The notes under the pieces are model-generated. The model was not told the origin of the DNA. It worked only from the letters and a program-made list of their open reading frames with translations, and did no database searches. Below, one piece after another: positions 3,511 to 31,739 of a stretch of 32,124 nucleotides of DNA. The stretch is from an uncultured Ruminiclostridium sp. GTDB taxonomy: Bacteria > Bacillota > Clostridia > Oscillospirales > Ruminococcaceae. The first letter of the stretch is position 1. Each line of letters starts with the position of its first letter. The stretch lies in contig CANQKE010000030.1 of assembly GCA_947624435.1 (NCBI GenBank), positions 1 through 32,124 on the forward strand. Reading direction: 5' to 3'. The position numbers were made by a program, and so were the translations under genes.

Positions 3511-4185
3511 TTACTGATATTTCTTATATCCGGGGTGCTTGCCGGTAACTCCGTACTGTTCTCTCATTCCGATAAGGCGGTCGATGTTCTCGCGGGAAAT
3601 GTCCTTTACTCCGCCGAGCAGCCGCGCTACCAGCGAGATATGCGCCTGTAACTCCATGGTCTCCATTCTGTAGTAAGCGGTGATGAGGTCGGCGCCTACG
3701 GTAAGCGCACCGTGGTTTTCCAGCAGCATGCAGTCATGATCCTTAAGGTACGGTGTTATCGCGTCGGGTACTTCATAAGTGGAGGGCGTACCATATGGGG
3801 TAAGCGGTATAGAGCCCACCGCGATTACCGTTTCTATCATGCAGTAATCGTCCATCGGCAGGTGCGCACAGGCAAATCCTGTAGAAACCGGCGGGTGTGC
3901 GTGTACTACCGCGCCGACATCCGGACGTTCCTGATAACAGCGCAGGTGCATTTTCACCTCCGATGAGGGACGCCAGCCCTCCTTTGCCTCTATTGTGTTG
4001 AAATCCCCGTCGATAAGACCTATCTTATCAGGTGTGATAAACGCTTTGCTGACGCCGGTCTGAGTGGCTAAATACCTGTTCTCGCCGACCTTTACCGTGA
4101 TGTTGCCGTCGTTTGCGGCTACCCAGCCTTTTTGCCAAAGCTTATGGCAGATGTCCACCATCTGTTCTTTTATTTCTTCATACAT
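3511..4185 (-). CDS. fucA: L-fuculose-1-phosphate aldolase (class II aldolase/AraD family), 224 aa
   Basis: It cleaves L-fuculose-1-phosphate to dihydroxyacetone phosphate and L-lactaldehyde, the last step of fucose breakdown. The class II aldolase zinc ligands are visible: Glu76 (SSEVKMH), His95 and His97 (VHAHPP), and His158 (ENHGAL). GNITVK near residue 28 is the family phosphate-binding region. Length matches E. coli FucA (about 215). It is the last gene of the fuc operon, separated from fucU by one copy of the repeated structured element (4183-4323). I place the start at 4185 (MYEEIKEQ) because family similarity begins there; an in-frame ATG at 4197 is possible. The open frame continues upstream to 4251 but those codons belong to the repeat. 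Related ribulose-phosphate epimerases (AraD) are the alternative, but context favours FucA. Confidence 0.88.
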   Translation of the reverse strand: MYEEIKEQMVDICHKLWQKGWVAANDGNITVKVGENRYLATQTGVSKAFITPDKIGLIDGDFNTIEAKEGWRPSSEVKMHLRCYQERPDVGAVVHAHPPVSTGFACAHLPMDDYCMIETVIAVGSIPLTPYGTPSTYEVPDAITPYLKDHDCMLLENHGALTVGADLITAYYRMETMELQAHISLVARLLGGVKDISRENIDRLIGMREQYGVTGKHPGYKKYQ

Positions 4186-4323
4186 AATTATGATCATGCT
4201 TGCTTTGCAAGCATCTCTCCTTTCGAGTTTTTGTACGGTTTTGCGAAGCAAAATTGCTGACCGTACTCAGCAAAGTAAAAAACTCACCTTCTGAAAAATA
4301 AATTTTTCAGAATTTTTCTCCTT
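4183..4323 (-). repeat. Structured repeat element, copy 1 (141 bp), upstream of fucA
   Basis: Read on the minus strand it starts with AAGGAG (4318-4323). Next come hairpin P1 (arms TTCTGAAAAA/TTTTTCAGAA within 4289-4312), a bulged hairpin P2 whose inner stem is TTTTGC-TTC-GCAAAA with flanking pairs GTACGG/CCGTAC and GAGTTTTT/AAAAACTC, an SD-like AAAGGAG (core 4217-4221), and the palindrome P3 ATGCTTGCAAAGCAAGCAT (4196-4214). Then come 10 nt and the likely fucA start codon. Copy 3 (31599-31739) aligns over the same 141 positions without gaps, and only about 6 of the last 91 positions differ by eye. Confidence 0.85.
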
Positions 4324-12758: not shown

Positions 12759-12787
12759 TTGACAAATATAAAAAACTGTGCTATAAT
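12759..12787 (+). promoter_or_regulatory. Sigma-A promoter of rplJ-rplL
   Basis: Perfect TTGACA (12759-12764), 17-bp spacer and perfect TATAAT (12782-12787). Confidence 0.9.
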
Positions 12788-12792
12788 AACAA

Positions 12793-12912
12793 CGCTGTTC
12801 TAAAGACAGCAGGTCGGTCTACCGCTAACGGAATTATTTTCCGCCTGCCGAGGAATGGGAAAATAGTGTTTTTTCCGCCCTGTTCCTCTGTGAACATGGG
12901 CTTTTATTTTTC
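12793..12912 (+). promoter_or_regulatory. Ribosomal protein L10 leader with attenuator
   Basis: The untranslated leader before rplJ contains a small hairpin (GCTGT/ACAGC) and a longer pairing in which GCAGGTCGG faces CCGCCTGC. It ends with a terminator-like hairpin: GCCC-TGTTC (12877-12885) pairs with GAACA-GGGC (12892-12901), followed by a U-rich run to 12912. This matches the place and general design of the known L10(L12)4-binding leader RNA, by which L10 represses its own operon. Confidence 0.78.
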
Positions 12913-12948
12913 CTTTTGAACAGTAAATATACGAAAGGAGAACCGTTT

Positions 12949-21127: not shown

Positions 21128-21201
21128 AAGTTTGAAAAATAAATTTTTCAAACTTTGAGTTTTCAAAACTTGAAAGAAGAGATGCTTGCTTTGCAAGCAT
21201 G
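21128..21201 (+). repeat. Structured repeat element, copy 2 (short variant), upstream of the four-helix protein
   Basis: P1 is an AT-rich hairpin at 21128-21155 with arms AAGTTTGAAAAA/TTTTTCAAACTT. P2 is reduced to AGTTTT-C-AAAACT (21158-21170). The SD-like site is degenerate (AAAGAAGAG, against AAAGGAGAG in the other copies). P3 is the same palindrome, ATGCTTGCTTTGCAAGCAT (21182-21200). Orientation is with the downstream gene. Here the downstream gene has its own SD, 40 bp away. Confidence 0.75.
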
Positions 21202-21240: not shown

Positions 21241-21675
21241 ATGATAGAACAGGATACCGTGCGTCTGCTCAGAGAATGTGACGCGGGCGTACAAATGGGA
21301 GTCGCGTCGATAGACAACGTACAGGGAAGAATAAAAAACGAGCAGCTCAGAAAGCTGCTGTCCGACAGCAAGGCGCAGCACCAGAAGCTCAATATCGAAA
21401 TACAGCAGCTGCTCGACCGTTATCACGATGACGGCAAAGCGCCCGACCTTATGGCAAAGGGTATGTCGTGGATGAAAACCAATCTCATGCTGTCAATGGA
21501 GGAGTCGGACGAAAAAATCGCCGATCTTATGACCGACGGCTGCAACATGGGAGTAAAATCGCTCGGCAAGTATCTCAATCAGTACGAGGCGGCGGATGAA
21601 AAGTCAAAGGACATCACCAAGCGCCTTATGAATATAGAAGAACGCCTCGCACAAGATATGCGCCCGTATCTTTAA
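21241..21675 (+). CDS. Four-helix-bundle protein of the DUF2383/PA2169 type, 144 aa
   Basis: An all-alpha protein of ferritin-like four-helix size. The N-terminal half (TVRLLRECDAGVQMGVASIDNV, then LRKLLSDSKAQHQKLNIEIQQLL) fits the DUF2383/PA2169 family, whose function is unknown. It has no signal peptide. The start at 21241 is chosen because GGAGGATATT lies directly before it; an in-frame ATG at 21199 sits inside the repeat element and has no good SD. It is monocistronic and ends at a terminator. Some clostridial proteins of this type are linked to stress or sporulation, but nothing here shows this. Confidence 0.75.
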   Translation: MIEQDTVRLLRECDAGVQMGVASIDNVQGRIKNEQLRKLLSDSKAQHQKLNIEIQQLLDRYHDDGKAPDLMAKGMSWMKTNLMLSMEESDEKIADLMTDGCNMGVKSLGKYLNQYEAADEKSKDITKRLMNIEERLAQDMRPYL

Positions 21676-31112: not shown

Positions 31113-31601
31113 TTATTGATATTTTCTTGCGCCGATAATATGCAGGCACCGCTTTAAGCTGAAGCTGTAGGCTGACAGCGGAATATTAAATGCGTCATTT
31201 GTATGAGCGGCAATATACGGCATGCCATTTAGCACACGGAGTACCAACAGGCTGTGGTAAAATCCGTCCCTGCTCCCAAGCTGAATTATATCTCCGGCTT
31301 TTACCGTGCCGAGCGGTACTTCCTTTGCAAAAGGTCCTGCACCTTTGTTTTGAGTAAGAAATTTATGAAGATATTCTACGCCCGTCCATGCGGCGGCTCT
31401 GTTGCTTAACGAAATATAATACCAGCCGATATCGGCAGTATAATTCATTACCGCACCTCCCGCATACAGACATTGGGAGATGAAATTGGTGCAGTCTCCG
31501 CCAAGATCGTCAAAATTATGATACATGGGATTTCGCGAAAATGCCCATTTGTGCGCATATTCTATCTCTGCCGAAATGTTGAGTGGATATTCAACTAACA
31601 T
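31113..31601 (-). CDS. Stand-alone amidase-domain (Amidase_6-type) protein, 162 aa
   Basis: A papain/NlpC-like putative amidase domain with EYAHKWAFSRNPMYHNFDDLGGDCTNFISQCLYAGG, the family's start, holding the likely catalytic Cys37. Later come His116 (DGFYHSLLV) and the polar residue near 135-136 (HTNDAF). In other clostridia this domain usually sits at the C-terminus of a longer secreted protein; here it is almost alone and has no signal peptide. The start is placed at 31601 by analogy with fucA; 31613 is also possible. The open frame runs up to 31667, but those 22 codons are the repeat element (copy 3) and match the same extension at fucA. A cell-wall or peptide substrate is possible. Confidence 0.8.
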   Translation of the reverse strand: MLVEYPLNISAEIEYAHKWAFSRNPMYHNFDDLGGDCTNFISQCLYAGGAVMNYTADIGWYYISLSNRAAAWTGVEYLHKFLTQNKGAGPFAKEVPLGTVKAGDIIQLGSRDGFYHSLLVLRVLNGMPYIAAHTNDAFNIPLSAYSFSLKRCLHIIGARKYQ

Positions 31602-31739
31602 ATTTATGACCATGCTTGCAAAGCAAGCATCTCTCCTTTCGAGTTTTTGTACGGTTTTGCGAAGCAAAATTGCTGACCGTATTCAGCAAAGCGCAAAACG
31701 CAAAGTCTGAAAAATTTATTTTTTCAGACTTCCCTCCTT
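31599..31739 (-). repeat. Structured repeat element, copy 3 (141 bp), upstream of the amidase gene
   Basis: Read on the minus strand: AAGGAG (31734-31739), hairpin P1 with an 11-bp stem (AGTCTGAAAAA/TTTTTCAGACT), P2 with the inner stem TTTTGC-TTC-GCAAAA and ACGG/CCGT, the SD-like AAAGGAGAG, palindrome P3 (ATGCTTGC-TTT-GCAAGCAT), then 10 nt and an ATG. It aligns without gaps with copy 1. Confidence 0.85.

What the first reader, a model, noticed from the sequence alone, without database searches (positions are those of the whole stretch)
4183..4323. A 141-bp structured repeat precedes three unrelated genes, always in the sense direction
Copies at 4183-4323 (minus, before fucA), 31599-31739 (minus, before an amidase-domain gene) and a shorter form at 21128-21201 (plus, before a four-helix-bundle gene) share the order P1 hairpin, P2 hairpin, SD-like box and P3 palindrome. 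The two full copies align over 141 positions with no gaps. All three point the same way as the next gene, which suggests a function in the mRNA rather than random insertion. I do not recognise it as any known riboswitch, REP or MITE family; that it is new is inference.
Basis: partly seen in the sequence, partly recalled or inferred. Interest (0 to 1): 0.82.

Follow-up and report, generated by a model that had tools for sequence, protein, structure and literature searches.

The report
Mobile RNA element before start codons
A gut bacterium carries dozens of copies of a small folded mobile element that sits between a gene's ribosome-binding site and its start codon, facing the gene, and appears to bring a replacement ribosome-binding site of its own.

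Summary
The repeat is real, and there is far more of it than three copies. The window's genome (G000) holds 55 covariance-model matches; with 12 short forms these make 59 loci. At the 3' end, 45 of 59 begin a co-directed ORF of at least 100 aa within a 10-nt window; mirror control 0 of 59. The element is P1 hairpin, P2 three-way junction, Shine-Dalgarno (SD), P3 hairpin, RTNATAA. Across 15 genomes, 38 of 43 base pairs show compensatory double changes. Rfam has no match. Orthologous empty sites in a sister species (15 of 19) show insertion, without evident target duplication, between the native SD/spacer and the last bases before ATG. The element thus displaces the host SD by about 130 nt and offers another, a median 31 nt from the start codon, or 12 nt with P3 looped out, like the T4 gene 25 split site. 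Downstream genes are unrelated and include serS, tyrS, murG and gmk. Best reading: a non-autonomous mobile element that lands on ribosome-binding sites and carries a copy of one. No enzyme was found, and there are no expression data.

The parts
4188..4312 (-). Copy 1, inserted unit (TTCTG...GATCATAA) before fucA
   Evidence: CM match 4183-4314; empty site in G031, G030, G018, G009
4287..4314 (-). Copy 1, P1 hairpin (its outer AA is host flank)
   Evidence: A2 columns 1-28
4225..4285 (-). Copy 1, P2 three-way junction with P2a 4254-4273 and P2b 4239-4253
   Evidence: A2 columns 30-90; covariation
4217..4223 (-). Copy 1, element-borne Shine-Dalgarno AAAGGAG
   Evidence: SD status against gene context
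4196..4214 (-). Copy 1, P3 hairpin between SD and start codon (loop AAA, inverted relative to most copies)
4318..4323 (-). Displaced native SD AAGGAG of fucA (host, not element)
   Evidence: orthologous empty sites
3511..4185 (-). fucA-like class II aldolase, starts at the element's end
   Evidence: Aldolase_II 1.2e-45, domain from residue 7
31604..31729 (-). Copy 2, inserted unit (GTCTG...GGTCATAA) before an amidase gene
   Evidence: CM match 31599-31731
31703..31731 (-). Copy 2, P1 hairpin
31633..31639 (-). Copy 2, element-borne SD AAAGGAG
31612..31630 (-). Copy 2, P3 hairpin
31733..31739 (-). Probable displaced native SD AAGGAGG upstream of copy 2
   Evidence: sequence; only a distant empty orthologue (G009) was found for this site
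31113..31601 (-). Amidase_6 protein, starts at the element's end
   Evidence: PF12671 8.9e-33, domain from residue 10
21128..21201 (+). Copy 3, decayed short form: P1, P2 deleted, SD broken (GAAGAG), P3; followed by a P1-like remnant of a second unit
21241..21675 (+). Gene after copy 3, with its own SD (AAGGAGG) and ATG

Best explanation
This is a family of small (about 125-nt), non-autonomous, directional mobile elements whose landing site is a gene's ribosome-binding site. A copy enters between the native SD plus A-rich spacer and the last bases before the start codon, in the sense direction and without an evident target duplication. Its own 3' end (SD, optional P3 hairpin, RTNATAA) imitates the site it entered, so the displaced SD is replaced and the gene stays translatable. 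Ribosomes bind the element's SD; P3 folds and brings the start codon from about 31 nt to about 12 nt, as in the T4 gene 25 split site. Because the 3' end is itself a landing site, further copies can land there and make head-to-tail arrays. Shown by sequence: position, direction, conserved fold, empty and filled sites, association of an intact SD with a gene at the canonical position. Inferred: gain rather than loss at most differing sites, use of the element's SD, bridging by P3, the landing rule. Unknown: the enzyme.
For: Position: ORFs of at least 100 aa begin in the 10-nt window at the 3' end of 45 of 59 G000 loci, against 0 of 59 in the mirror control; by a looser test (23% of random sites pass) 53 of 59 in G000 and 22 of 22 examined in G031. 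Several downstream products have Pfam domains starting at once (SerS 1, Cons_hypoth95 1, AroQ 2, MurG-type 3, ProC-type 3, Gmk 6), so the ATG at the element's end is plausibly the true start. Fold: 38 of 43 pairs with double changes, 319 cells against a shuffled mean of 88 and at most 61 in slid controls (39 rows, 15 genomes); in the own genome alone 11 of 43 (17 rows). Mobility: of 19 sites with an orthologue in G031 (starts 88-98% identical), 15 are empty there; of 46 orthologue rows from G030, G018 and G009, one is filled (G030, C33), one a scar (G018, C33), the other 44 show no element. Junctions: the last 2 nt before the start recur on the right in 12 of 17 sites (my reading). Left flanks in G000+G031: A at -1 in 63 of 67 and at -2 in 59 of 67, G/A-rich further up. 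Tandem junctions GATTAA|GTCTG and GGTAA|GTTTG. SD: intact in 53 of 59 units in which P3 was recognised; Fisher p = 0.006 for SD against ORF at the canonical place. Spacing: median 31 nt linear, 12 nt with P3 looped out, 60 units. Same architecture in other families of the order and of the class.
Against: No mobilising gene found: Y1_Tnp is present once in G000 and G009 but absent from G031 and G017; reverse transcriptase and IS110 transposase are absent from G000, G031 and G009. The landing rule rests on 17 sites with a near empty orthologue; in 5 of them (C16:13800, C27, C3, C8, C47:6182) the last two bases do not recur, and with the 5 sites where only a more distant orthologue is empty the count is 14 of 22. 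A-rich flanks make a 2-3 nt duplication hard to exclude. Loss also happens: G018 at C33 and G031 at C30:21128 show P1 scars, so an empty site is not always ancestral. Three SD-intact units have only 16-, 60- and 65-aa frames at the canonical place. The predicted SD is only about half unpaired on average (0.51 over 38 copies), because an alternative fold pairs it with CUC. In G145, 8 of 11 matches have no SD-start arrangement at their end, and congeners have repeats with the P2 core and no SD, so RBS landing belongs to some lineages only. No expression data.
Confidence: 0.7

Rival explanations
1. A cis-regulatory RNA (riboswitch-like or protein-binding leader) controlling a regulon by SD occlusion, kept by selection before its genes.
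For: Strongly conserved fold next to the SD; an alternative fold can pair CUC with the SD; tandem copies exist, as in some riboswitches.
Against: The 40 downstream proteins scanned share no pathway. 15 of 19 comparable sites are empty in a sister species. Only 9 unpaired positions are at least 90% conserved across 39 sequences. By eye, the alternative fold is not possible in subfamilies such as G071. No Rfam match.
Confidence: 0.13
2. An ordinary MITE- or IS200-like repeat that inserts widely; only copies just before start codons survive because they carry an RBS and do no harm there.
For: Directional insertion without duplication is known for IS200/IS605 elements (recalled); G000 has one IS200-type transposase.
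Against: Harmless places should then hold copies too, yet 0 of 59 loci begin an ORF of at least 100 aa in the mirror orientation, and the two copies without a convincing downstream gene (C17:3497, C6:47492) lie directly after a gene's stop codon, as if their gene had been lost. The resident IS200-like ends do not resemble the element by eye. The transposase does not track with the element.
Confidence: 0.12
3. A portable 5'-UTR spread by homologous recombination or gene conversion between genes, with no transposition.
For: Copies within one genome resemble each other more than those of other species.
Against: Flanks of different copies share no obvious homology beyond a short SD and A-rich run, and the element ends at the start codon.
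Confidence: 0.05

Closest known systems
Bacteriophage T4 genes 25 and 38 split ribosome-binding sites (PMC3014915, passages seen)
   Same: An SD too far from the AUG is brought close by a structure between them: gene 25 from 27 to 11 nt, gene 38 from 22 to 5 nt. Here a median of 31 to 12 nt.
   Different: Single phage genes, tested at the bench; not a dispersed mobile element before dozens of unrelated bacterial genes.
Small bacterial mobile repeats/MITEs (RUP, ERIC, Correia, RPE and others; PMC2229807, passages seen)
   Same: About 100-150 bp, folded, many copies, non-autonomous.
   Different: Five of the seven in its table have terminal inverted repeats and four a target duplication; the term start codon does not occur in its text. 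No inverted ends and no clear duplication here.
IS200/IS605-type single-strand elements and their non-autonomous derivatives (recalled)
   Same: Hairpins near both ends, directional insertion next to a short motif repeated at the element's 3' end, no target duplication.
   Different: Target here is an SD-spacer-start site; no transposase tracks with it; resident IS200-like ends look unlike it.
IS110/IS1111 with seekRNA (PMC11187229, search listing with start of abstract only)
   Same: Structured RNA and site-specific insertion.
   Different: PF02371 absent from G000, G031 and G009; there a non-coding region of the element guides it, here the structured unit is itself the mobile piece.

Membership tests
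MITE | terminal inverted repeats | tested here: not met
   Ends GTCTGAAAAA... and ...GRTNATAA are not inverted repeats, read directly
MITE | target-site duplication | tested here: inconclusive
   Empty/filled pairs fit no duplication, but 2-3 A residues could hide one
MITE | an autonomous relative with the same ends | tested here: inconclusive
   No left half / right half pair around an insert seen among the own-genome matches, read by eye
IS200/IS605 derivative | directional insertion without duplication | tested here: inconclusive
   Direction met; lack of duplication likely but with the caveat above
IS200/IS605 derivative | Y1 transposase in carrier genomes | tested here: not met
   Absent from G031 and G017, one copy in G000 and G009; draft genomes
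Group II intron / retro-element | reverse transcriptase in carrier genomes | tested here: not met
   PF00078 absent from G000, G031 and G009, present in G017
Riboswitch or other Rfam family | match to a covariance model | tested here: not met
   Whole window at gathering scores; L002, L288 and L149 at E <= 10, only implausible matches
Riboswitch | downstream genes of one pathway | tested here: not met
   40 proteins
Riboswitch | conserved unpaired aptamer core | tested here: not met
   Only 9 unpaired positions reach 90% conservation
Riboswitch | ligand-dependent switching | not testable with these tools
   needs the bench
T4-type split RBS | SD beyond normal spacing, hairpin restores it | tested here: met
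   Computed geometry only
T4-type split RBS | hairpin raises translation | not testable with these tools
   needs reporter assays

The most novel reading that the evidence does not exclude
A new kind of mobile genetic element, an RBS-homing element, found in scattered genomes across one bacterial class: it recognises translation start sites as landing sites, enters only between SD and start codon, and carries a hairpin-bridged RBS copy that keeps even core genes (serS, murG, gmk) translated. It does for ribosome-binding sites what tRNA-targeting integrative elements do for tRNA genes.
Probability: 0.45. Interest if true: 0.93.

Novelty: new variant of a known kind. Interest (0 to 1): 0.85.

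Why it matters
If true, bacteria have mobile elements that use the translation start itself as a safe harbour, rewriting the ribosome-binding sites of dozens of genes without breaking them. The family is a natural experiment on how far an SD can be from a start codon, with many SD-hairpin-AUG constructs and their empty orthologues. It also raises a testable question: what recognises a translation start at the DNA or mRNA level? The parts could serve as portable RBS modules for gut Clostridia.

Tried and rejected
Leader peptide: the ATG at the 5' side of P3 is lost in many copies and in other species, so a conserved upstream ORF is rejected. Coding element: length differences of 1 nt between copies break any frame. 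Target duplication: tried first (AATT, AAAG, AAAA at single sites), dropped when the pairs were read together. Y1 transposase, reverse transcriptase and IS110 as mover: not tracking. Viral contigs: 0 hits for the exact P2 core pattern. Rfam at E <= 10 on three loci: only implausible matches. Papers: the listings showed no title or abstract describing such an element (open-access PMC only; two searches returned no papers); one search gave the T4 precedent.

Limits of the counts. A loose placement test (-20 to +5 nt, ORF >= 60 aa) passes at 23% of random sites, so the stricter test with a mirror control is the one to rely on. The SD-context table covers 59 of 67 G000 units, those in which a pattern recognised P3 (C44, which has a P3, was missed); it includes three tandem-internal units and a spurious 91-aa ORF. 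The reading that all six broken-SD copies are explained was made afterwards by eye; the automatic test counts two of them (C6:47492, C30:21128) as having an ORF. In one search, 22 of 27 G031 matches, 10 of 10 from G009 and 11 of 14 from G017 were examined; the rest were weak and not fetched. It also left out the matches of G060, G016, G001, G073, G033, G008, G005 and G029 (those printed show no SD/ATG arrangement). One of the 47 rows of the alignment is a weak match on the wrong strand (L030, E = 0.0003); one search has none. In the class search only 9 candidates per genome were scored, so 4 of 391 is a floor. Of 69 orthologue matches, 66 were read and 3 short ones dropped. In some searches the G018 row under C29 was misplaced: it belongs to C33 and was re-read, where it shows a P1 scar. 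Orthology at C26 is unsure (two candidates).

Full report
OBSERVATION. The three copies are present as described. In the own genome a blastn search with copy 2 gives 45 matches at E <= 6.5e-32 out of 74 at E <= 10. The SD plus P3 pattern with up to 3 mismatches occurs 39 times against 0 for the reversed pattern, and P3 alone with up to 1 mismatch 46 times against 0. A covariance model from 17 copies (R1) finds 55 matches in G000; 22 of 60 genomes of the genus, own included, have a match at E <= 0.01, part of them only the type without SD described below.

ANATOMY. From 5' to 3': P1, an AT-rich hairpin; P2, a stem closing two hairpins (P2a variable; P2b TTTTGC-loop-GCAAAA conserved); GAAAGGAG; P3, usually ATGCTTGC-TTT-GCAAGCAT; then RTNATAA-NN and the start codon. 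On the own-genome alignment 11 of 43 pairs show double changes. On alignments fitted to the model the figure is 39 of 43 across 13 genomes of the genus (47 rows, one of them a weak wrong-strand match), and 38 of 43 across 15 genomes including other families, with 319 double-change cells against a shuffled mean of 88 and at most 61 when slid (39 rows). These alignments lean towards the model's fold, but the slid controls show that the signal belongs to this pairing. P3 is absent in the two G017 copies printed and in the six G111 copies; in G009, G071, G002, G062, G083 and G247 it has a different sequence and the same shape.

PLACEMENT. The 55 model matches and 12 short forms added by hand make 67 units in 59 loci. 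In a 10-nt window at the 3' end, 55 of 59 have ATG or GTG; 49 of 59 begin an ORF of at least 60 aa and 45 of 59 one of at least 100 aa. The same test on the other strand at the 5' end gives 1 and 0 of 59. The model itself ends in ATG, which favours an ATG there but not an open frame behind it: 28% of random ATGs in these stretches open 100 aa or more. By a looser test 53 of 59 pass (23% of random sites would). Its six exceptions are an array running off a contig end (C36), three with the ORF start 28-55 nt further on (C15, C16:47854, C52), one with no gene (C17:3497) and one unexplained (C8:2). A further copy, C6:47492, passes only through a 91-aa frame that seems to run through a terminator. 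In G031 22 of 22 examined loci pass, in 12 other congeners 27 of 35, several of the failures lying at contig ends. Of the 59 units with a downstream frame of at least 85 aa, 40 proteins were scanned; 32 have a Pfam match, among them SerS, TyrS, MurG-type and MraY-type transferases, a Mur ligase, Gmk, ThiI, AroQ, ProC, threonine synthase, a carboxyl transferase and a uracil-DNA glycosylase. There is no common theme.

EMPTY SITES. A joined query of the starts of 24 downstream genes was placed in four congeners and the regions upstream were read. In the closest, G031, 19 of the 24 sites were found: 15 are empty, 2 filled (C12:37331, C40), 1 filled but decayed (C6:38921), 1 a remnant (C30:21128). 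In G030, G018 and G009, of 46 rows one is filled (G030, C33), one has a P1 scar (G018, C33) and 44 show no element. Examples, native | filled left ... filled right: fucA AAGGAGGAAAAATT-ATG | AAGGAGAAAAA[TTCTG... ...GATCATAA]TT-ATG; serS TAGGAGATAAAAA-ATG | TAGGAGAGTAAA[ATCTG... ...GGTCAGAA]AA-ATG; C1:46666 AGGTGATAAAT-ATG | AGGTGATAA[GTCTT... ...AGTGATAA]AT-ATG; C44 against G030 AAGGAGATCAAAA-ATG | AAGGAGATCAA[GTCTG... ...GGTAATAA]AA-ATG. The simplest description is an insertion behind the A-rich end of the spacer, leaving the native SD on the left and the last two native bases on the right, with no evident duplication. By my reading the last two bases are kept in 12 of 17 sites with a near empty orthologue (C26 left out), and in 14 of 22 when five sites with only a more distant empty orthologue are added. 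Over 67 non-tandem left flanks in G000 and G031 the last two positions are A in 63 and 59, preceded by a G/A-rich stretch. Head-to-tail arrays (C9 x3, C21 x4) join where the element's own end offers a like site, and in G145 and G111 one copy each follows a sequence like the element's own right end. Scars in G018 (C33) and G031 (C30:21128) show that copies are also lost.

FUNCTION. After insertion the native SD is about 130 nt from the start codon. The element's own SD is intact in 53 of 59 units in which P3 was recognised. Of the six broken ones, two have no convincing gene behind them (C17:3497, C6:47492), one has no ORF of 75 aa at the canonical place (C15), and three have another SD before a start further down (C30:21128, C52, C16:47854). 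The automatic form of this test gives p = 0.006; the finer reading is mine after the fact. Of the six SD-intact units without an ORF of 75 aa, three are inside tandem arrays and three have frames of 16, 60 and 65 aa. GGAG to ATG is a median 31 nt along the chain and 12 nt with P3 looped out (60 units in G000 and G031; the stem was mis-parsed in at least 7). P3-free forms in G017, G111 and G145 have AAAGG 11-13 nt before ATG, in G000 16-17 nt (C26, C21:17864). The murG site is a natural test pair: G000 has P3, and the G031 orthologue lacks it but keeps CGAAAGGA and a short spacer. This is the geometry of T4 genes 25 and 38, where a structure shortens 27 to 11 and 22 to 5 nt and mutations that weaken it lower initiation (PMC3014915, passages). 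Against a plain ON design, the predicted SD is on average half paired (0.51 unpaired, 38 units), because an alternative P2 fold frees CUC to pair with it; this could mean regulation and is kept as a rival.

DISTRIBUTION. By DNA similarity 9 of 59 relatives have a match, all among 35 of the same genus and none among 24 of other families; named hits of an exact core pattern are MAGs labelled uncultured Ruminiclostridium sp. (13 of 14) or Clostridia bacterium (1), with the own or near genomes possibly left out. The fold reaches further: in the order, 5 of 147 genomes, own included, among them G111, G145 and G093 of other families; in the class, 4 of 391, own included, among them G210 and G247 of a family related at class level (reduced sensitivity). 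In G247, 6 of 7 copies end at an ORF start. In G145, 8 of 11 matches have no SD-start arrangement at their end, several being tandem arrays, and congeners have repeats with the P2 core and no SD; start-site landing therefore looks like one branch of a wider repeat superfamily.

MOVER. Not found. Y1 transposase, reverse transcriptase and IS110 transposase do not track with the element. The directional, apparently duplication-free insertion next to a motif repeated at the element's own 3' end resembles IS200/IS605 logic (recalled), but that is a likeness, not membership.

VERDICT. Fold, position and empty sites are solid; translation from the element's SD and bridging by P3 are likely; the landing mechanism is a proposal. 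No description was found in the searches named under Tried and rejected.

Noticed in passing
L153, L156, L158, L159, L160, L162, L163, L164, L306: Congeners (G060, G073, G001, G016, G008, G029, G033, G005, G035) carry repeats with a like P2 core (P2b TTTTGC..GCAAAACCG) but no SD or start codon at their end; a wider repeat superfamily.
   Followed up: partly
L291 1501-1842; L298 1328-1591: In G145, head-to-tail arrays of P1-P2 units without ribosome-binding site, in the same genome as copies that do sit before start codons.
   Followed up: partly
window 4196-4214 and other copies: Loops of P3 (TTT/AAA) and P1 (TAAA/TTTA) occur in both orientations within otherwise palindromic stems, as if the hairpin had flipped.
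   Followed up: no
G000 C2:91107, C47:6182, C15:32638, window 4183-4314: Copies with the P1 variant TTCTG..CAGAA often have AATT directly before the start codon (4 of 8 by eye); could hint at guide-like pairing of P1 with the target. Not tested.
   Followed up: no
L213 (G018, C33 site); L236 (G031, C30:21128 site): Sites that keep only the left arm of P1 (AAGCCTGAAAAA; AAGTTTGAAAAA): scars of lost copies.
   Followed up: partly
window 12782-12916: Ribosomal protein L10 leader (RF00557), ordinary.
   Followed up: no
L284 (G000 C20:10392-10748): Single IS200-type transposase gene with its own hairpins; ends unlike the element by eye.
   Followed up: partly
L228 (G031 C75, murG site): Orthologous element copy that has lost P3 but keeps a normally spaced SD.
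   Followed up: partly
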